Of a stretch of DNA of 28,174 nucleotides, positions 1 to 22,698 are shown piece by piece. A model generated the notes under the pieces. The model was not told where the DNA came from. It searched no databases and was given only the letters and a program-made list of their open reading frames with translations. The stretch is from a virus. A program made the translations under genes and the position numbers. The DNA lies in the IMG/VR virus record IMGVR_UViG_3300046492_000609, positions 1 through 28,174 of that record; one strand, 5' to 3'. The first letter of the stretch is position 1. Every line of letters starts with the position of its first letter.

Positions 1-471
1 CTACCTTCCCATCAAGGCGTCGTAGCTGGATTCACACGCGAATCCGGCCCGACGACCTGCGTCAAGCGCTGTTGCCAGCTGGCCCGCATGGTCGTCAGCT
101 TCTGCGCGCAGCTGGGCGAGCAGATCGGTAAGCTCTTCGATTGTCTTGCCTCGCTGGGCAAGGCGGGTATGGAGAGCGGCGCGGTCGGCGAGCAGGCCAC
201 CGGTTTGTTTGCGCAGGCTGTCACCAACAGCAGCAAGCTCAACAGCGTGAGCATCATCCAGGGTTTTCTGGTCATGGGCCTTGTCTCTTATCTGATCGAT
301 GGCGGCCTGATGCCGCTGTTCGGTTTGCCGCGCCACCGATTCGGCAATGCGCGCTTCACCCTGGATCTGGGCGACGTATTCGGCGTGCACCACCTCCAGG
401 GACATGAGGCGATAGGTTTGGGCGCCGGTGGCCAGCACCAGCAGGGCGATCACCGCCAGCAGGACCTTCAT
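1..471 (-). CDS. Rz: Rz-like inner-membrane spanin (i-spanin)
   Basis: This 156-aa protein has a single N-terminal hydrophobic segment (about residues 3-18, uncleaved anchor type) followed by a long charged, coiled-coil-like periplasmic domain rich in Ala, Glu, Gln and Arg. That is the layout of Rz-type i-spanins, which join the outer-membrane partner to fuse the two membranes in the last step of lysis. The call is supported strongly by context: it follows the endolysin gene with a 4-bp overlap and contains an Rz1-type lipoprotein gene in another frame. The ORF is complete, with its TAG stop at the first three bases of the window. Sequence identity to a particular Rz family was not tested, so the call rests on architecture and position. 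Confidence 0.85.
   Translation of the reverse strand: MKVLLAVIALLVLATGAQTYRLMSLEVVHAEYVAQIQGEARIAESVARQTEQRHQAAIDQIRDKAHDQKTLDDAHAVELAAVGDSLRKQTGGLLADRAALHTRLAQRGKTIEELTDLLAQLRAEADDHAGQLATALDAGRRAGFACESSYDALMGR
12..275 (-). CDS. Rz1: Rz1-like outer-membrane spanin lipoprotein embedded in Rz
   Basis: This 87-aa ORF lies wholly inside the Rz gene in a different frame. It starts MTRKPW, has a Leu-rich signal segment and a lipobox LVTAC with the lipidated Cys at residue 21. The mature part begins with a proline-rich stretch (NKPVACSPTAPLSIPALP), which is typical of Rz1-type o-spanins. Nested Rz/Rz1 genes are established in lambdoid phages. The start codon is less certain than the lipobox, which fixes the functional reading frame. 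The mature part is longer than the 40-residue lambda Rz1. Confidence 0.85.
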   Translation of the reverse strand: MTRKPWMMLTLLSLLLLVTACANKPVACSPTAPLSIPALPSEARQSKSLPICSPSCAQKLTTMRASWQQRLTQVVGPDSRVNPATTP

Positions 472-3793: not shown

Positions 3794-5419
3794 TCAGTAA
3801 TCAACCTGCACTTCGTGCACGCCCGCATCTGGGCGCCAATCGTCACGCTTCACCTCTGTCGGTTTCCCGACTATCCGCCCAATACGTACGGGGGTTTGGC
3901 TGATTGCGCCGGCGCCGGAGTCGATAAAGTCGTCTGGCTGGTCGCTGATGGCCGGGTTGAAGTCGCGCATCTGGTCCCACACAGTGCGCAGGACGTCGAC
4001 ATGAGCCCACAAGAAGCGGGCCGATAGCGGCGACTCGAAGGCGTCCAGGATGCGCTTCTGCTTGTTCACGGTGGAGTGCTCTTCACGGACCCCACAGCCC
4101 GTGCCTTTCAATGCCTGTCTGAGGATGTTGGGCACAAACCCGCCCGGTCCGTTGGTCTCCACCACGACGCATGGGATCTGGAACTTGAGCACCAGCTCGC
4201 GCACCCGGGCGACCTGCCCTCCCACGATCCGGTCCTTGCTGTCGAACTCTGCCAGCTCGCCGGTCAAGCCCTCGCACTGGTGCCAGTACAGCTGGCCACG
4301 GGCATCGGTCAACAGCAGAGAGAACGCCGAGGCGTCCGATTTGATCTTGCCCAGCGACACGTCCCAGTAGGCCACCGCGCTGACGATCTGGGTGGTACCC
4401 AGGAACATGGCAGCTGCACCGTTGGCGTACCGCATTTCGGGGTGCACGTCGTAGGGAATGATGCGGGCCGGATCCAGGCGCACTTCCGTGATTGGCTTGG
4501 AGTGGAGCTGATACTGCGAGTCCCATTCGTTGATGGTCCGAGTCTTTCGGCGGCGGTCGCCCAGTTCTTCGGCGTTGAAGCGATCAGCCCAGGCGCAGCC
4601 AGCGTAGCAGTCCACCAGCGTGCCGGGCGGCGTGAAGAAGGCGATGCCTGTCTTGGTTACCTGGTAGTCCTTGCCCGGCACCAGCAGGCGGGCGTGCTTG
4701 CCAATGCCGGAAAACACCACCTCGGGAACGAACGGCACGTCGTAACCGTGCTGCTTGGCGTCCTCAATGCGGTGCTCCTGGGCGAACATGCGGATGGTCA
4801 GGCAGTCGGCGCCCAGGCCTTCGACCTCGTCGTAGATGCTGTCGTGGGTGTGCGGGGTGCCGATGAACAGCTGGCGCGCCCCGGGCACCATGATGTGGAT
4901 CTGCTCGCCCAGCCGGTACCGCATTTTCTCCCGAGCTTCCGGGGTCTGGATGTTCCGGGGCACCTCCACGTCGTCGTTCTGGCATTCATCCGCCCGGGCC
5001 GACGTGACGTTGGAGAGGATGCCCTTGGCGAACATGCTGGCGTTCCGGAAGTCCTGAGCGCCCAGCACCCACCACTGTTCAACCGTGCCCTGCCCGGCCG
5101 GCAACAGGTGCTTGGTAAGCGGGTGATTGCGCAGCACGTTCTGCGTGTCGCGGCTGGTCTTGTAGGCGGTGGGGTCCGACTCCGACTGGTGCAAGATGCG
5201 GTACGTAGGGTCGAGGTAATACCGCCAGGCGTTGTACACTGCGAGGATGGTGGACTTACCGAAGCCCCGAAAACAGCGAAGCACCGCAAGGTTTCCACGG
5301 TGCTCCAGCCAATGGCACGCCCGGATGTGCACGTCCGGGACTTTCCACCCCATGCGCTTGGCCCACATGAGGAAAAACGCCAACAGTGAGATATACGGGC
5401 GCTGGTTCTCAGTGGACAT
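3794..5419 (-). CDS. Terminase large subunit (T7 gp19/DNA maturase B-like)
   Basis: This 541-aa packaging motor ATPase and nuclease has a Walker A motif FRGFGKST at residues about 50-57. An acidic segment (DECQNDDVEVPRN) sits where gp19-type proteins carry Walker B (ADDVEVP). LFIGTPHTHDSIY follows, and the C-terminal nuclease domain begins AYWDVSLGKIKSDASAF with the expected metal-binding Asp residues. The start was set at ATG 5419 (MSTENQ), overlapping the small-subunit gene by 11 bp; GTG 5425 in the same frame is an alternative. The last 25 codons contain one copy of the ATAGTCGGGAAACCGAC element, read in frame as IVGKPT. Together with the small subunit it translocates DNA through the portal into the procapsid. 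Confidence 0.93.
   Translation of the reverse strand: MSTENQRPYISLLAFFLMWAKRMGWKVPDVHIRACHWLEHRGNLAVLRCFRGFGKSTILAVYNAWRYYLDPTYRILHQSESDPTAYKTSRDTQNVLRNHPLTKHLLPAGQGTVEQWWVLGAQDFRNASMFAKGILSNVTSARADECQNDDVEVPRNIQTPEAREKMRYRLGEQIHIMVPGARQLFIGTPHTHDSIYDEVEGLGADCLTIRMFAQEHRIEDAKQHGYDVPFVPEVVFSGIGKHARLLVPGKDYQVTKTGIAFFTPPGTLVDCYAGCAWADRFNAEELGDRRRKTRTINEWDSQYQLHSKPITEVRLDPARIIPYDVHPEMRYANGAAAMFLGTTQIVSAVAYWDVSLGKIKSDASAFSLLLTDARGQLYWHQCEGLTGELAEFDSKDRIVGGQVARVRELVLKFQIPCVVVETNGPGGFVPNILRQALKGTGCGVREEHSTVNKQKRILDAFESPLSARFLWAHVDVLRTVWDQMRDFNPAISDQPDDFIDSGAGAISQTPVRIGRIVGKPTEVKRDDWRPDAGVHEVQVDY
3858..3874 (-). repeat. ATAGTCGGGAAACCGAC element, copy 1 (inside terminase gene)
   Basis: The minus strand reads ATAGTCGGGAAACCGAC, identical over 17 bases to copies 3 and 4. 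RNA would form GTCGG-GAAA-CCGAC, a 5-bp stem closed by a GNRA tetraloop. This copy is translated (I-V-G-K-P-T) near the C-terminus of the large terminase, 88 bases upstream of the tail fibre start. All four copies point in the direction of late transcription. Confidence 0.85.
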
Positions 5420-5744
5420 GGCCACCTTGCTGCGCTCGCTCGAGCAGCGCTTGGGCCTCCCTTTCAGCTTTCGCTATGTCGTTGTCCAACCCATCGTCGT
5501 CATCGCTGCCTACCGGCGCCTTTGTCCGGTTCAGCGTGCCGCAAATGTTCATCACCCTGACCAGCAGCGTCATGGTGGCGGCGGCGTTCTTCTTGCACCA
5601 GTAACGGTCGCCCCGTTCCTGCTGGGTTATTTCGGCCAGGGGCTTGTCGTTGCCAGGCCACTGGCTGGGGTCTGCCTCGCTGATCACTACTTCGGCCAGC
5701 CCTTCGGCCAGCACCTGCATCCGGTCGAGTTGGTCACTGCGCAT
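5409..5744 (-). CDS. Terminase small subunit-like protein
   Basis: The 111-aa acidic protein lies directly upstream of, and overlaps, the large terminase gene, the usual place of the DNA-recognising small subunit (maturase A). The segment GDRYWCKKNAAATMTLLVRV resembles the central helix seen in small terminase-associated proteins of related podophages. The C-terminal part (DDDDGLDNDIAKAEREAQALLERAQQ) is acidic, then helical. No clear helix-turn-helix can be picked out by eye. The call is therefore based mainly on gene order and size. The start ATG 5744 shares a base with the stop of the preceding ejection-protein gene. Confidence 0.65.
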   Translation of the reverse strand: MRSDQLDRMQVLAEGLAEVVISEADPSQWPGNDKPLAEITQQERGDRYWCKKNAAATMTLLVRVMNICGTLNRTKAPVGSDDDDGLDNDIAKAEREAQALLERAQQGGHVH

Positions 5745-8287
5745 CAGTTGTCTCCTACGGCGGCGCCGAGGTCAGGGCCTCGGCTCGGGGCTGCTTCGCC
5801 CGGTTCCCACCAGTAGCTCTGGCCGAAGTCCTTCTGCGCGCGGCGGGTCATGCGGCTGAGGTAGCCAGGGGAGAAAAATTCCTGCAGCTGGTGGAACACC
5901 AGGTGATCCATGGCGGCCTTGGTGTACCAGAGGTTGGCGCCCGGGATGTGGCCTTTGGCGAAGCGCACCAGGTTGCCGCCGGTTTGATCGACATTGCCGT
6001 CAGCAGCGGATCCTTTGAGCTTGAACAGGGATTCAATATCGCCAGCGATGGGCCCGCCCAACGAAGCCAGGGCCGAGTTGCCGCCTTGGGTCTGGTCACT
6101 GAACAGGAAGTCGCCGTACAGGCCCAGCGCGCCGCCCTTGAGGAATGAGGCCAGGCCGAAGCGCAGGCCGGGCACGCCCAGCGTCTTGTCGTCGGTCATG
6201 TCCTTGGGGTCACGGCCGGCGATGACCTCGCCAAGCTGGATAACCATGCCGCCAAGGACAGTTGTGGTAGCGGCTGTTGCGGCCAGATAGCCGGCCTTGC
6301 CCCACCCCGTTTCCTGAGCCATGGCGCGCCGGAAGTGACGCATGATCATCGCCACCGAGAAGCTCTTGAACTGCCAGAACGACCGGGCAATCTCACCCTT
6401 GAAGGTGCCCCGCTCGAAGCCGCCGTGCATAAAAACCTTTTCCCGGGCACCGGGCTCGATGATCGCCATGTTGGTTTCGTCCAGGACGGTGCCCAGCAAC
6501 TTGGTGGCGGCCTGGTCGCGCAAGCGTGTCGGGGTCATCCCCAAGGATTTCGCCAAACCCTGCAAGCTTGAATCTTTGATGCGATAGATGCTGGCAGGGG
6601 TCAGTACCGTGTCACCGGCACCGCGCCAGTCTTCGGGCTCAGCCAGGCGCCACACCTGCCAGTCGGTTTCGGTGACACCCTGGCCCTTGAGGCGGGTCCG
6701 ATCGGCATCTTCCATCATCGACATCGAACGGTGCTTACGGCTCATTTCGCCCAGCGTATCCAGCATGGTCGCACCGAACGCCCGCTGCGTTCCGGCAGTC
6801 AAGGCGTTGAGCCCGGAGGCCTGCATTACTTTACTGGCGGCGGTCTGAGAGAACTTCGCGACACGACCAGATATCTCGGCAGTGCTGCCCAAACCATCGG
6901 CGCCCCAGCGGTTCAAACTGCCGATCAGCTGGTTCAGCCCCAGGCCCGCGCGCATGGCCAGACGGCGGTCAGTGGCATCAGCAGGGTTAAGCATTCGTAG
7001 CTCGTTGGAGAACACCTGCATCACCGGCATGTTGTTCATGTGGGCCGTGATGCCCAGCGTGCCTTGGTCCGTCAACGAAGTCACCACAGCAGAACCAAGC
7101 CGAGCGCCTACGTTCAGCGCTCGATACGTATCGAATCCATTCGCAATGCTGGCGTTGGCGGGGGGCTCGCCGGTTCCGGCGATTTCTTCGTATAGCCGCT
7201 CGATCTTGCGGCGTTGACGCTGATTCTTTGGGGATTTCCGAGGCGCCATGATATCGGCCGCCTTTTGCTGGTTGTCGAGCCAGTAGCGCAGCTGGTGGTC
7301 CGGGTTAGGCCCGAACGCTTCGACCAGGGCTATATCGCTGGAAGCCTTATGCAGGTGGCCCAGCAGCAGCTCCAACAGGTTCTTCTCCCCGTAGCGCTCC
7401 TGGGCTGCGATGAATGCCTCGGCGTCTTTGTAGTGGATCTGGCGGGACTCGCTGCCACGGTTGGCACGCATCCCATCACCACCAACGCGGCCGGGCTCAA
7501 GCTTGCTGGTGCCGCCGGTGGCCAGGGTCAACCATGCATTGCCCAGGAACTCGCGCAGTTCCACGTCGTTCATGGCCGCGCCGTCTTCCTTGATGTACTT
7601 GGCGCGGTTCGCCCACTGCACGTGGTCATTGACCCAGGCGTCTTTATCCTTGGCCACCCGAATCTGCGAGTGATCGCGCGGCATGGACCAGTCGTCCAGA
7701 AACCCGACATCACCGCCGGCACGGTTGAAGCGCTGGCGCAGGCGCTCGGCCACGTCCTTGAATTGCTTGGCCGCCACCTTGGCCTCGGGCACACCTGAGT
7801 CGGTGCCGTGCAGCTCGCGCACCAGGGCCAGGTTGCCGCCGGCGTCCTGCAGCAGCCCCATGAACTTGCCCTTGGTCAGGTCGATGACGTCCAGCATGCG
7901 CGACACGGATTCGTCGCGGATCGCCCGGCCGGCGGATTCCACGGACTGGATGCCACTGCGACCATCCGAGGTGAAGGCCATCATGCGATCCAGCCCTTCG
8001 AGGGGGGCCGTGGGGAAGCGCGCCACGTAGTTGGCAACACGGTCATGGGCAAGGATGGTCAGAGCAACGCGGCGTTTCTTTAGAGCCTGCTCGTCGACCA
8101 GCTGCTTAGCCGCGGCGGTGGCGGCTTCGGTCAGACGGTCTGCGGCGGTCTTGGATTGCCAGGCCGGGTCCTTCTGCGCGAGCTGGCGCATCGTCATGCG
8201 GATGCGGTTCTCGATGCCCTGGACTTCGGTCTGGTTGAGGTGGCGGCCTATCGCTTGAGTGACGGCCTTGATGCATTCGGGGCGCAT
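5744..8287 (-). CDS. Large internal virion/ejection protein (gp16 C-terminal-like)
   Basis: The 847-aa protein starts MRPECIKAVTQAIGRHLN, has a long helical Arg/Ala/Glu-rich first half, and a C-terminal half with hydrophobic Gly/Ala stretches (YLAATAATTTVLGGMVIQLG; LASFLKGGALGLYGDFLF). It ends in FFSPGYLSRM and DFGQSYWWEPGEAAPSR. These features and its place between the ejection-protein genes and terminase match the second large internal protein of T7-virion-type temperate podophages, corresponding to the C-terminal part of T7 gp16. It would sit in the capsid core and be injected to form the trans-envelope DNA channel. Its Shine-Dalgarno lies in a hairpin (8292-8314). No lytic transglycosylase motif is visible. 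Confidence 0.75.
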   Translation of the reverse strand: MRPECIKAVTQAIGRHLNQTEVQGIENRIRMTMRQLAQKDPAWQSKTAADRLTEAATAAAKQLVDEQALKKRRVALTILAHDRVANYVARFPTAPLEGLDRMMAFTSDGRSGIQSVESAGRAIRDESVSRMLDVIDLTKGKFMGLLQDAGGNLALVRELHGTDSGVPEAKVAAKQFKDVAERLRQRFNRAGGDVGFLDDWSMPRDHSQIRVAKDKDAWVNDHVQWANRAKYIKEDGAAMNDVELREFLGNAWLTLATGGTSKLEPGRVGGDGMRANRGSESRQIHYKDAEAFIAAQERYGEKNLLELLLGHLHKASSDIALVEAFGPNPDHQLRYWLDNQQKAADIMAPRKSPKNQRQRRKIERLYEEIAGTGEPPANASIANGFDTYRALNVGARLGSAVVTSLTDQGTLGITAHMNNMPVMQVFSNELRMLNPADATDRRLAMRAGLGLNQLIGSLNRWGADGLGSTAEISGRVAKFSQTAASKVMQASGLNALTAGTQRAFGATMLDTLGEMSRKHRSMSMMEDADRTRLKGQGVTETDWQVWRLAEPEDWRGAGDTVLTPASIYRIKDSSLQGLAKSLGMTPTRLRDQAATKLLGTVLDETNMAIIEPGAREKVFMHGGFERGTFKGEIARSFWQFKSFSVAMIMRHFRRAMAQETGWGKAGYLAATAATTTVLGGMVIQLGEVIAGRDPKDMTDDKTLGVPGLRFGLASFLKGGALGLYGDFLFSDQTQGGNSALASLGGPIAGDIESLFKLKGSAADGNVDQTGGNLVRFAKGHIPGANLWYTKAAMDHLVFHQLQEFFSPGYLSRMTRRAQKDFGQSYWWEPGEAAPSRGPDLGAAVGDN

Positions 8288-8291
8288 GGCT

Positions 8292-8314
8292 TGCCTCCAG
8301 TTGGGATGGAGGCA
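8292..8314 (-). promoter_or_regulatory. RNA hairpin that sequesters the Shine-Dalgarno of the 847-aa ejection protein gene
   Basis: On the minus strand TGCCTCCA pairs perfectly with TGGAGGCA across the 7-base loop TCCCAAC. The 3' arm contains GGAGG, the only good Shine-Dalgarno for ATG 8287, six bases before the start. The fold would hide the ribosome binding site. Translational damping of this gene is an inference. Confidence 0.6.
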
Positions 8315-8332
8315 GCCTATGAGGGAGGGTTA

Positions 8333-8349
8333 GACGGTTTCCCGACTAT
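8333..8349 (-). repeat. ATAGTCGGGAAACCGTC element, copy 2
   Basis: The minus strand reads GCAAATAGTCGGGAAACCGTC. It differs from the other copies by one base (T for A), which puts one mismatch in the 5-bp stem. The flanking GCAAATAG matches copy 3. The TAG in the element is the stop codon of the YecR-like lipoprotein gene, and the element ends 46 bases before the next gene. Confidence 0.85.
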
Positions 8350-8690
8350 TTGCTGTCAACGCACTGGTATTTCACGCGGTATTTTTTGGACCAGCAAGGG
8401 CTGATGCCTTGCGCCTGACAGACCTCAGTGACTGGCAGCTGCCCGTTGCGGTACATATCGGCGCCGGCGTAGCCCCAGCTCTTGCAGCGCCGGTCAGCTT
8501 CGCCATCAGCCTGCGCTACGTCCCATTGAATCATGGTCTCGCGCACACCCATCTTGGGCGGAACATCGATGCCAAGGGTTACAACGCCGTCGCTTTTGCT
8601 GCCGTCGACCATGGCCCAGTTCCCATGTTCGGTGGGGGTGGCGCACCCGGCCAAGAGCGCCACAGCCATCAATGCAATGTACTTCACCAT
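8346..8690 (-). CDS. YecR-like lipoprotein
   Basis: The 114-aa precursor has a short signal peptide and lipobox LLAGC with Cys16 as the predicted lipidated residue. The mature part contains VDGSKSDGVVTLG, then ADRRCKSWGYAGADMY and KYRVKYQCVD, the signature spacing of YecR-like lipoproteins (SKxDG, C..WGY.A, YQC). Start ATG 8690 is preferred over upstream TTG/GTG because AGGAGG lies nine bases before it. It is inserted between two ejection-protein genes, an unusual place for a lipoprotein. It may be a lysogenic-conversion or superinfection-exclusion factor in the cell envelope, or a virion-associated factor expressed late. Function is unknown; family assignment is by motif recall. Confidence 0.8.
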   Translation of the reverse strand: MVKYIALMAVALLAGCATPTEHGNWAMVDGSKSDGVVTLGIDVPPKMGVRETMIQWDVAQADGEADRRCKSWGYAGADMYRNGQLPVTEVCQAQGISPCWSKKYRVKYQCVDSK

Positions 8691-8725
8691 GATCACCAAC
8701 CTCCTGTTGTGGGGTTGTGATGCTA

Positions 8726-10561
8726 TTACGATTCACCCCTCTGCAGGAAGCAGGCGGCTGCGGCCAGAAAGCCCTTGGTGTCGCTTTGGGCCTGCTGCAG
8801 CTGGGCATCAGCCTCGGCCAGCAATTGCTTGGCTGACACGGTTACAGGCCGCCCCTCGGCATCGATGGCGCCGGTGGGCAGCTGCAGGTCTTCCATGTGG
8901 TCGACGATGCCCTGCGCCAGCTGCACCTCAGGATCCACATCGGCGGGGTTTTGTTGCGCTTCCTGCCCGTCCTGTTGCGCTTTTGCGCCGGATTGTTGCG
9001 CGTTCTGCCCATCTTGTTGCACGGCAGGCTCTGGTTGGTCGATGGATTCACGCGCCGCCCGGGGCATACCGGCCAGGCCATCGTCGGCGACCGCCGTGTG
9101 CGGGACCTGCTCGCGGTCGATGTCGCCGAGGGCGCGGCCGATCTCCTGGCGGGCAATCTGCCGGAACGACAGCTGGTTGCCGCTGGCCACACCACTAGCC
9201 AATGGGGTCTTCTCGAAGGCCTTGGCCATTTCATCGGCACGTGCCTGCACCCGCTGGTTCAGCACTTCCGAGGGTTCACCGCGGTTCAGGCGCCCCAGCT
9301 CGGCCCCGGCCTGCTCGGCCTGACGGTTCATGTCGAGGGCTGAATTTATCTCGCCTTGACGGTCGGTGAGGGTCTGGCGGTCCTGGGCGATGGCGTCACG
9401 CGCGGAAGCCTCGGCAGCCTTTCGGCCTTGGCCCTGCTGCTGGAACTGCTTGGCGCGGTCCTTGAAACTGTCGTCGAGGCCGTCCAGCGTGCGCTGCATC
9501 TCTGCCACTTCCTGCTTGAGGTCAGCCACATTGGGCTGGCGCTGGCTCGCTTGCTGGTCCAGCTCGGCACGGTAGGCCGGTTCCAGTTCCTGCCGGGCGG
9601 CGGTCTCGGCCACTTCACGGCTCGGCGCCATGGGCGCAGCCTCATCACCAGAACGGAGAAACCCCGCGTCCATGATGCGGGGTGGCAGGTTGACCGGCTC
9701 GCCGCGGCTGATCTGGTCCAAGGCAGTGCGCAATGCTTCCTGGTGAGAGACCGACGACACCGCATCGATCGGCACCCCCGGTGCGATGTCGACCTGTGCG
9801 TTCTGCGCGTTGCGCTGGGTCAGCGCCGCATCGACCTGGGGCTGGCTAAACCGACGAGACAGGCCCCAGAAGGCACTGCCCATCACCAGATCGGCAGCAA
9901 TGGACGCGGCGTCGAAGGCCTTGTATTGCTGGGCCTGCGCCTCATAGCCGTTGGCAGATAGCAAGGCATTCAGCCCGCCACGGTTCGCCAGGCCCAGCCC
10001 GACGTTGCCGCCAGCCGCCAGGGCGAAGTCGGCCAACTTACCTGCCACGATGCCGCTACCAGGCAGCATGCCACCTACGCCCATGGTGGCCGCCTGGATC
10101 ACCGAAGCACCAATAGCGGTGCCTGAGCCCACACCCTGGTCGACCAGATCGAGGCCAGTGTTGAGGCCTTCGGTAGCCGCCAAGCCAGAAACACCCCCGG
10201 CGGTCAACGAGGTGAGCATCTGCGCGACGCCACCCAGCAGCCGCCCTGCACTGCCAGTCTCTTGGGCGCCGGGCGTCCAATACTTCACAGCGTCGGTACC
10301 GTAGTCGTCCATGGTTTCAAACCACGAGTCTTGGGCCTTGGTGCCCCCGGTGGCCGCATCGTAGGCGATAGGACCGACAGACAGCGCCAGCATGCCCGCC
10401 CGGGCAGAACGCGCAAAACCGGCCATGGCGTAGTTACCGATGGCCTGGTTGGTGCGGTAGAAGGTAGGCACCTGGACAGCGTCCGGGCTCAGTGGGTTGA
10501 GGTTGGCCTGCTCGTCCTGGACGCGCTGACCTTCGGTGTCGAGGTCGAAAACGGTGCTCAC
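8726..10561 (-). CDS. Internal virion/ejection protein (gp16 N-terminal-like, Gly/Ala-rich)
   Basis: The 611-aa protein starts at GTG 10561, overlapping the preceding stop as GTGA. Residues about 40-250 are rich in Gly, Ala and hydrophobic residues (RLLGGVAQMLTSLTAGGVSG; GASVIQAATMGVGGMLPG), which suggests membrane-active helices. The second half is highly polar and helical, with a repetitive Gln-rich tract (DGQNAQQ, AQQDGQEAQQ at about 520-550). With the 847-aa protein it appears to replace the single large gp16 core protein of T7. Neither contains a recognisable transglycosylase motif. Assignment is by gene order and composition. Confidence 0.7.
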   Translation of the reverse strand: MSTVFDLDTEGQRVQDEQANLNPLSPDAVQVPTFYRTNQAIGNYAMAGFARSARAGMLALSVGPIAYDAATGGTKAQDSWFETMDDYGTDAVKYWTPGAQETGSAGRLLGGVAQMLTSLTAGGVSGLAATEGLNTGLDLVDQGVGSGTAIGASVIQAATMGVGGMLPGSGIVAGKLADFALAAGGNVGLGLANRGGLNALLSANGYEAQAQQYKAFDAASIAADLVMGSAFWGLSRRFSQPQVDAALTQRNAQNAQVDIAPGVPIDAVSSVSHQEALRTALDQISRGEPVNLPPRIMDAGFLRSGDEAAPMAPSREVAETAARQELEPAYRAELDQQASQRQPNVADLKQEVAEMQRTLDGLDDSFKDRAKQFQQQGQGRKAAEASARDAIAQDRQTLTDRQGEINSALDMNRQAEQAGAELGRLNRGEPSEVLNQRVQARADEMAKAFEKTPLASGVASGNQLSFRQIARQEIGRALGDIDREQVPHTAVADDGLAGMPRAARESIDQPEPAVQQDGQNAQQSGAKAQQDGQEAQQNPADVDPEVQLAQGIVDHMEDLQLPTGAIDAEGRPVTVSAKQLLAEADAQLQQAQSDTKGFLAAAACFLQRGES

Positions 10562-18646: not shown

Positions 18647-18852
18647 GGCGCTCGCTCCAAAAGATTGATGTGTCCGCCTTGTTGCAGGGTGTCCGCTGCG
18701 CGGGCCTGGTGTTCGCGGTGCGTCGGCGTCATTGCCGCACCTACGGGCAGTTGCTTGCGGGTATCCACGAGCCATCGCGGGCCGCCCCTTGCGGGATTGC
18801 CAGCGATGTTCGGGTACGGAGACTGTCGGTTTCCCGACTATTTGCGAGGGGG
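18647..18852 (-). promoter_or_regulatory. Long leader in front of the major capsid gene
   Basis: This is the largest gap (206 bp) in the late region. It holds the third copy of the ATAGTCGGGAAACCGAC element at its 5' end and a hairpin at 18717-18741 (GGTGCG pairing with CGCACC). A GGAGCGAG ribosome site lies at the 3' end. No clear sigma-70 promoter is visible. An ORF runs through it from GTG at about 18768 into the capsid gene in another frame, but it has no ribosome site. A promoter, processing site or translation control of capsid mRNA is likely; which one is undecided. Confidence 0.45.
18825..18841 (-). repeat. ATAGTCGGGAAACCGAC element, copy 3
   Basis: The minus strand reads GCAAATAGTCGGGAAACCGAC: core identical to copies 1 and 4, with the same GCAAATAG flank as copy 2. 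It lies seven to eleven bases after the scaffold stop codon and 179 bases before the capsid start. The stem GTCGG/CCGAC is perfect, with a GAAA loop. No U-run follows, so it is not a standard terminator. Confidence 0.88.
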
Positions 18853-22451: not shown

Positions 22452-22468
22452 GTCGGTTTCCCGACTAT
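22452..22468 (-). repeat. ATAGTCGGGAAACCGAC element, copy 4
   Basis: The minus strand reads GCAATAGTCGGGAAACCGACA. The TAG of the element is the stop codon of the 77-aa gene upstream, as in copy 2. It lies 55 bases before the first late gene, at the boundary between early and late minus-strand genes. Confidence 0.88.
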
Positions 22469-22698
22469 TGCTCAGGAACCTCAACGGCGAAGTAAGACTC
22501 TTGATCAACTCGAACAATGGGTAGCCCCATCAAGTTTTCGTTGCCGCTGGCCCTGTCGAAGAAAAATCGGGTCGTCGCTTCCAGCTCCACCGAGACAGAT
22601 TCTTTGTGCCCGATCACCACGGACAACCCCGCCGGCAGCTTGCCGTGCTGCTCCACAAGAGATTTCTTTTCGATTATGACGCGTTTTGCGATTTCCAT
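22465..22698 (-). CDS. Hypothetical 77-aa protein, last early minus-strand gene
   Basis: The protein starts MEIAKRVIIEKKSLVEQHGK at ATG 22698, preceded by an excellent GAGGTAA site. It has alternating strands (LSVVIGHKESVSVELEATTR; PIVRVDQESYFAVEVPEQ), which suggests a small beta-rich fold. The longer upstream ORF extension was rejected because it runs through the HTH gene in another frame. Not recognised. Its stop codon is part of the copy-4 element. Confidence 0.75.
   Translation of the reverse strand: MEIAKRVIIEKKSLVEQHGKLPAGLSVVIGHKESVSVELEATTRFFFDRASGNENLMGLPIVRVDQESYFAVEVPEQ

What the first reader, a model, noticed from the sequence alone, without database searches (positions are those of the whole stretch)
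8346..8690. YecR-like lipoprotein inserted between two DNA-ejection protein genes
A lipoprotein with lipobox LLAGC and YecR signature lies in the middle of the ejection-protein cluster, ends in a copy of the hairpin element, and splits the two gp16-like genes. Lipoproteins are not normal parts of this module. Late synthesis in the envelope could block re-adsorption or DNA entry, protecting progeny, as T5 Llp does.
Basis: partly seen in the sequence, partly recalled or inferred. Interest (0 to 1): 0.5.

Follow-up and report, generated by a model that had tools for sequence, protein, structure and literature searches.

The report
Lipoprotein cassette in phage ejection-gene slot
A phage carries a small outer-membrane lipoprotein gene in a swappable slot between two genes for the machinery that pushes its DNA into cells; related phages fill the same slot mostly with other cell-envelope proteins, which suggests a set of interchangeable "door-locking" or host-surface-altering genes.

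Summary
Minus-strand 8346-8690 encodes a 114-aa lipoprotein (LLAGC) of Pfam YecR. It lies between two late virion genes that overlap in two relatives, and its stop codon overlaps one of four copies of a hairpin element. The new result comes from the relatives. In 40 viral contigs with this junction, 23 have no gene there. The other 17 hold something different just 5' of the hairpin: 9 lipoproteins (three families), 5 transmembrane proteins, 1 secreted protein, 1 lysis cassette, 1 without an ORF. Contents differ between near-identical relatives. So this is a conserved cargo slot for envelope proteins, and YecR is one sporadic occupant (0 of 24 slot-bearing relatives searched have it). The predicted fold matches Salmonella YecR bound to the flagellar L ring (Z 10.5, 84 of 84 residues). 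Best explanation: an accessory outer-membrane lipoprotein made with the late operon that blocks superinfection or alters an envelope machine, by analogy with P22 SieA and the mEpimmI lipoproteins. Exclusion is inferred, not shown; the flagellar clue points to a different target than T5 Llp's. Host conversion is the main rival.

The parts
8346..8690 (-). yecR-like lipoprotein gene (114 aa, signal peptide plus LLAGC lipobox)
   Evidence: PF13992 E 7.9e-21; AF2 model pLDDT 80.7 and match to 7bgl YecR; 64% to Bbp28 of BPP-1
8700..8705 (-). Shine-Dalgarno AGGAGG of yecR
   Evidence: read from sequence
8333..8347 (-). hairpin element copy, right boundary of the cargo slot
   Evidence: same place in relatives
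8285..8321 (-). second hairpin, holds the Shine-Dalgarno of the downstream gene
   Evidence: Shine-Dalgarno paired in 38 of 40 leaders folded
8726..10561 (-). upstream ejection-module gene (ej2, 611 aa), left boundary of the slot
   Evidence: phrog_1145 6.8e-49; conserved ...CFLQRG end in most relatives
5744..8287 (-). downstream ejection-module gene (ej3, 847 aa, virion structural protein)
   Evidence: phrog_684 1e-269
3858..3872 (-). hairpin element copy inside the 3' end of the terminase gene, upstream of the tailspike gene
18825..18839 (-). hairpin element copy between protease/scaffold and major head protein genes
22452..22466 (-). hairpin element copy upstream of the portal-side genes

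Best explanation
The gene is an accessory single-gene cassette sitting in a conserved insertion slot between ejection-module genes ej2 and ej3. The slot lies between the ej2 stop codon and a repeated hairpin element (shown). The protein has a lipobox and an Ala after the cysteine, so it should be lipidated and carried to the outer membrane, where it faces the periplasm (inferred from the recalled +2 rule). It has its own ribosome site but no promoter-like site, so it is probably made with the late operon, late in infection or on induction (inferred). There it most likely binds a protein of an outer-membrane machine and makes the cell refractory to entry of further phage DNA, or protects released progeny from ejecting into debris (inferred from the kind of cargo, its turnover and published precedents). 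The flagellar L ring is the leading candidate target, because the protein has the fold of the YecR that decorates that ring.
For: Family, lipobox and fold. Empty versus filled slot with the same borders in 40 contigs. Nine cargo families against a background of small genes under one hydrophobicity/lipobox rule: 8 of 9 versus 19 of 94 (Fisher p 7e-5). Turnover: 14 changes for 12 labels on the ej3 tree; close relatives hold different cargo or none. YecR in 0 of 24 slot-bearing relatives, so it is a recent or mobile occupant. Temperate group: integrase in 14 of 19 records searched. In other viral contigs YecR also sits among tail genes, e.g. L012 between minor tail protein and tail assembly protein/J, L011 between distal tail protein and J-like gene. 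Literature.
Against: No adsorption, exclusion or expression data. PHROG Cor model does not match this protein at E up to 1. PADLOC has no match. Two cargo genes are antisense and one slot holds a lysis cassette, so the slot is not purely for exclusion genes. E. coli yecR deletion appeared in a screen for genes whose loss REDUCES lambda infection (PMC2900299), which is opposite in sign to an exclusion role, though for the host gene. The host of this phage and whether it has flagella are unknown.
Confidence: 0.45

Rival explanations
1. Lysogenic conversion or host-physiology gene: the lipoprotein docks on the host flagellar L ring or another outer-membrane machine and changes motility or envelope integrity, with no role in phage exclusion.
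For: Fold and profile match to YecR of the Salmonella LP ring; a paper states that YecR sits on the outside of the L ring and is not needed for its formation, and suggests it may protect the outer membrane (PMC11756786); yecR is under FlhDC in E. coli (PMC4183435); yecR disruption was listed as deleterious under antibiotics (PMC2680486); yecR on 2.1-kb plasmids.
Against: No promoter-like site of its own in the window; placed in the late operon beside entry genes; most other cargo in the slot is unrelated in sequence.
Confidence: 0.27
2. Late lysis or envelope helper: the slot hosts genes that help lysis or release, and YecR is one of them.
For: One relative (L132) has an endolysin/spanin cassette in the same slot; small transmembrane cargo could be holin-like.
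Against: The window has its own endolysin and Rz spanin genes and a nested Rz1-like lipoprotein; YecR matches spanin models only weakly, through its signal peptide.
Confidence: 0.1
3. The lipoprotein is a virion or ejection-complex component delivered with the ejection proteins.
For: Position between two ejection-module genes.
Against: Absent from most relatives that keep both neighbours; has an export signal, which virion proteins assembled in the cytoplasm should not have.
Confidence: 0.05
4. Neutral passenger: the slot merely tolerates insertions and YecR has no selected function here.
For: Rapid turnover and many empty slots.
Against: Cargo is strongly biased to envelope proteins, and yecR keeps an intact frame, a ribosome site and the conserved cysteines.
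Confidence: 0.13

Closest known systems
Bbp28 of Bordetella phage BPP-1
   Same: 64% identical YecR-like lipoprotein with the same extra segment and ADMYR motif
   Different: In BPP-1 the gene lies outside the ejection cluster, on the opposite strand to its neighbours, beside the terminase genes; annotated hypothetical
Salmonella YecR on the flagellar LP ring (PDB 7bgl chain 1)
   Same: Same family (profile E 9.8e-15) and fold (Z 10.5, rmsd 2.2, 84 of 84)
   Different: Cellular gene; about a quarter identical; ring binding of the phage protein untested
P22 SieA
   Same: Envelope protein gene next to ejection genes in short-tailed phages, several sequence types (PMC10883804)
   Different: [quoted passage not shown] YecR is a lipoprotein
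mEpimmI Lpp021/Lpp010 exclusion lipoproteins
   Same: Lipoprotein genes within the structural gene cluster, several types (PMC11893012)
   Different: A YecR query found no mEp record in the phage collection, so no homology was seen; whether mEp records are held there was not checked
T5 Llp / Cor
   Same: Small phage lipoprotein; Llp is shown to be periplasmic (PMC9586334), as is expected here
   Different: No match to the Cor PHROG; different size and cysteine pattern (recalled for Llp)

Membership tests
YecR-like lipoproteins (PF13992) | Score above the curated cut-off | tested here: met
   74.6 bits versus 27
YecR-like lipoproteins (PF13992) | Signal peptide, lipobox and conserved cysteines | tested here: met
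   C16, C69, C91, C99, C110 invariant in 31 sequences
YecR-like lipoproteins (PF13992) | Fold of Salmonella YecR | tested here: met
YecR-like lipoproteins (PF13992) | Association with the flagellar L ring | not testable with these tools
   needs host and binding assay
Llp/Cor superinfection-exclusion lipoproteins | Sequence relation to Cor | tested here: not met
   phrog_1119 absent for this protein at E up to 1
Llp/Cor superinfection-exclusion lipoproteins | Blocks infection when expressed | not testable with these tools
   bench test needed
P22 SieA | Polytopic inner-membrane protein | tested here: not met
   lipobox protein with one N-terminal hydrophobic stretch
Moron (extra gene between genes adjacent in relatives) | Neighbours adjacent in relatives without the gene | tested here: met
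   MPK9, YeP4 and 23 empty slots
Moron (extra gene between genes adjacent in relatives) | Own promoter and terminator | tested here: inconclusive
   no sigma-70-like or terminator-like site in 8240-8900; simple consensus scan only
Moron (extra gene between genes adjacent in relatives) | Odd base composition | tested here: inconclusive
   GC 0.594 versus mean 0.634, sd 0.024 of 21 window genes
Rz1-type o-spanin | O-spanin of the phage, nested in or after Rz | tested here: not met
   yecR is far from Rz, and a nested Rz1-like lipoprotein lies in the Rz gene

The most novel reading that the evidence does not exclude
The slot is an exchangeable arsenal of envelope proteins, some built as look-alikes of accessory lipoproteins of outer-membrane machines (YecR of the flagellar L ring; the commonest cargo lipoprotein has a BamE/OsmE-like predicted fold at middling score), which sit on those machines and close them as entry routes. 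Its place between ejection genes keeps lock and key genetically linked, and the repeated hairpin element is the recombination border.
Probability: 0.18. Interest if true: 0.82.

Novelty: new variant of a known kind. Interest (0 to 1): 0.6.

Why it matters
It gives an ordered catalogue of candidate superinfection-exclusion genes that can be found by position alone: whatever lies between the ej2 stop and the hairpin. It also offers a handle on YecR, which a 2014 paper called a gene of unknown function (PMC4183435) and which has since been seen on the flagellar L ring: phage copies let its function be tested by exclusion and motility assays.

Tried and rejected
Close-relative scans with the single protein gave nothing in viral contigs or genome contigs; a degenerate motif for this subfamily found only BPP-1 in viral contigs and nothing in genome contigs. 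Absence there means only that the strict patterns did not match. NCBIfam gave no family for four YecR proteins; PHROGs none for the window protein at E 0.01; PADLOC none for six proteins.

Considered and rejected: that the hairpin belongs to the lipoprotein gene. It stays in empty slots and in three other places. Because slots were collected by searching for the hairpin, its presence in them is by construction; it was not found in the MPK9 stretch around this junction, and in YeP4 only in the terminase. A terminator role is not supported (no terminator-like site found at 8240-8900). Rfam had no match in the window. A tRNA in the L239 slot was suspected; ARAGORN found none.

The envelope test used a rule I wrote after seeing the cargo; L120's secreted protein failed the rule and was counted as a miss; the lysis cassette and the slot without an ORF were not among the nine families. 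The control was small annotated genes of MPK9, YeP4 and part of BPP-1 (94). For the neighbour survey I passed 55 of 95 neighbour ORFs listed, from 35 representatives of 82 YecR loci; 12 of the 82 were left out because my lipobox rule did not call them (some truncated at a contig end). The BamE/OsmE resemblance of the commonest cargo (Z 5.2 to 7.0) is below the level the tool calls safe, the two best rows there are other proteins, and Foldseek alone did not list BamE or OsmE among its first 50 rows.

Full report
What is there. The ORF at 8346-8690 on the minus strand codes for 114 residues, has AGGAGG nine bases before its ATG, a hydrophobic N-terminus ending in LLAGC, and matches Pfam YecR at 74.6 bits against a cut-off of 27. 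In an alignment of 31 YecR-like proteins the lipidated cysteine and four further cysteines are invariant; this protein and Bbp28 of Bordetella phage BPP-1 (64% identical) share an extra segment and ADMYR in place of AEAFGG. The record is a 28,174-base viral contig of unnamed host.

Neighbourhood. The gene lies between 8726-10561 (phrog_1145, unknown function) and 5744-8287 (phrog_684, virion structural protein), downstream of an internal virion protein and a phrog_992 protein, and upstream of terminase and tail genes. In Pseudomonas phage MPK9 (61% identical in the downstream protein) and Yersinia phage YeP4 the two homologous genes overlap. In BPP-1 the related gene sits elsewhere, by the terminase genes and on the other strand.

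The hairpin. AGTCGGGAAACCGAC with a GAAA loop occurs four times, always on the coding strand; a 12-nt core gives 4 matches against 0.17 expected. The yecR stop overlaps the copy at 8333-8347, which has one mismatch. In relatives the copies lie at fixed places: before the portal-side gene, before the major head protein gene, before ej3 (the 5744-8287 homologue), and inside the terminase 3' end before the tailspike gene; of 194 element sites in the loci, not thinned by contig, 10, 33, 42 and 48 fell into these four and 61 were unassigned. One such contig has all four copies and no gene at the ejection junction. A second hairpin at 8285-8321 covers the Shine-Dalgarno of ej3; it is paired in 38 of 40 leaders folded.

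The slot. A narrower scan gave 40 stretches, of which 38 show the junction; with one more (L132) and the window there are 40 contigs. In 23 the ej2 stop lies within 25 bases of the hairpin or overlaps it. In 17 something sits between, directly 5' of the hairpin: the window's YecR; one lipoprotein family (two members match phrog_3716) in L119, L222, L205, L225, L227, L234 and L241, where L119 and L222 are near-identical; an antisense lipoprotein in L150; an antisense secreted protein in L120; transmembrane proteins in L191, L203, L226, L228 and L229; a lysis cassette in L132; and no ORF in L239. Under one rule for membrane segment or lipobox, 8 of 9 cargo families count as envelope proteins against 19 of 94 small genes of three phages (p 7e-5). 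On the ej3 tree (38 rows) 12 labels need 14 changes, the minimum being 11 and the shuffled mean 15.6; very close rows such as L203, L234 and L180 carry a membrane protein, a lipoprotein and nothing. PF13992 was found in 0 of 24 slot-bearing relatives. Integrases were found in 14 of 19 relatives' records and not in the window, which may be a fragment.

YecR elsewhere in viruses. A motif scan found 82 viral stretches with canonical YecR; 70 of 82 ORFs passed a lipobox rule. Of 55 neighbour proteins scanned, 4 matched central tail fiber J and 4 a minor tail protein, with several more tail families and a few repressors. L012 carries YecR between a minor tail protein and tail assembly protein plus J; L011 between a distal tail protein and a J-like gene. 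Synechococcus phage Yong-L1-251 carries one among tail genes.

Fold. The AlphaFold2 model (28 sequences, pLDDT 80.7, pTM 0.67) matches Salmonella YecR in the 26-fold LP ring, PDB 7bgl: Foldseek E 1.4e-3, TM 0.79 on the target; Z 10.5, rmsd 2.2, 84 of 84 residues, the next row Z 5.0. The profile finds the same chain at 9.8e-15; the single sequence only at 0.41. A passage in PMC11756786 says YecR is a lipoprotein on the outside of the L ring and not required for its formation. I saw only that passage; the DOI I recalled for the original structure paper is not held. The commonest cargo lipoprotein gives a model with BamE and OsmE among its best rows at Z 5.2 to 7.0, behind two other proteins at 9.1 and 7.5; this is a hint only.

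How it works. Shown: lipoprotein of the YecR family; conserved slot; envelope bias; turnover. Inferred: outer-membrane location, expression with the late operon, target and effect. Superinfection exclusion is favoured because P22 SieA, an envelope protein encoded next to ejection gene 16, is escaped by changes in ejection proteins (PMC10883804, abstract and passages) and because lipoproteins encoded in the structural cluster of mEpimmI phages excluded phages when expressed (PMC11893012, section 3.7 and passages). T5 Llp is a periplasmic lipoprotein that jams FhuA (PMC9586334, passages); the phage YecR does not match the Cor model. Against: a host yecR deletion came up in a screen for loss of lambda infectivity (PMC2900299, passages), which would make host YecR a helper. 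That temperate phages can remodel host flagella I saw only as a search listing with the start of an abstract (PMC13418256).

Novelty. Searches for YecR with lipoprotein and phage, for YecR-like, YecR family or YecR homolog, and for superinfection exclusion with ejection protein, hotspot and prophage showed no title in their listings that describes a phage YecR or this slot. The held library is open-access only. The kind (accessory envelope gene in a temperate phage) is known; the fixed slot between ejection genes, bordered by a repeated hairpin and filled almost only with envelope proteins, is the new variant.

Noticed in passing
Its function is unexplained; slot-specific variants exist (GAAC loop at the portal side, CCGTC at the ejection slot).
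   Followed up: partly
window 8285-8321: A hairpin sequesters the Shine-Dalgarno of the downstream virion gene and is kept in 38 of 40 leaders folded; possible translational control.
   Followed up: partly
window 22465-22698: A 77-aa minus-strand gene without a PHROG match also ends with its TAG stop in a hairpin copy, as yecR does.
   Followed up: no
window 12-275: Rz1-like lipoprotein nested in the Rz spanin gene 1-471.
   Followed up: no
L006 447-770: YecR lipoprotein gene on small (mostly 2.1-kb) mobilizable plasmids of Salmonella, Shigella and Klebsiella.
   Followed up: no
L132, between the ej2 homologue and the hairpin: A lysis cassette occupies the slot and is preceded by a second, degenerate hairpin copy TCGGGAATCCGAC right after the ej2 stop.
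   Followed up: partly
L150 9955-9982: A sigma-70-like site TTGATA-16-TATTTT overlaps the element on the strand of the antisense lipoprotein; none found for L120.
   Followed up: partly
L239, slot of 168 nt: No ORF of 45 aa or more; a terminator-like stem with T run and a T-arm-like stretch by eye, but ARAGORN finds no tRNA.
   Followed up: partly
L241 3626-3994 and relatives: The commonest cargo lipoprotein (phrog_3716) has a BamE/OsmE-like predicted fold at middling score.
   Followed up: partly
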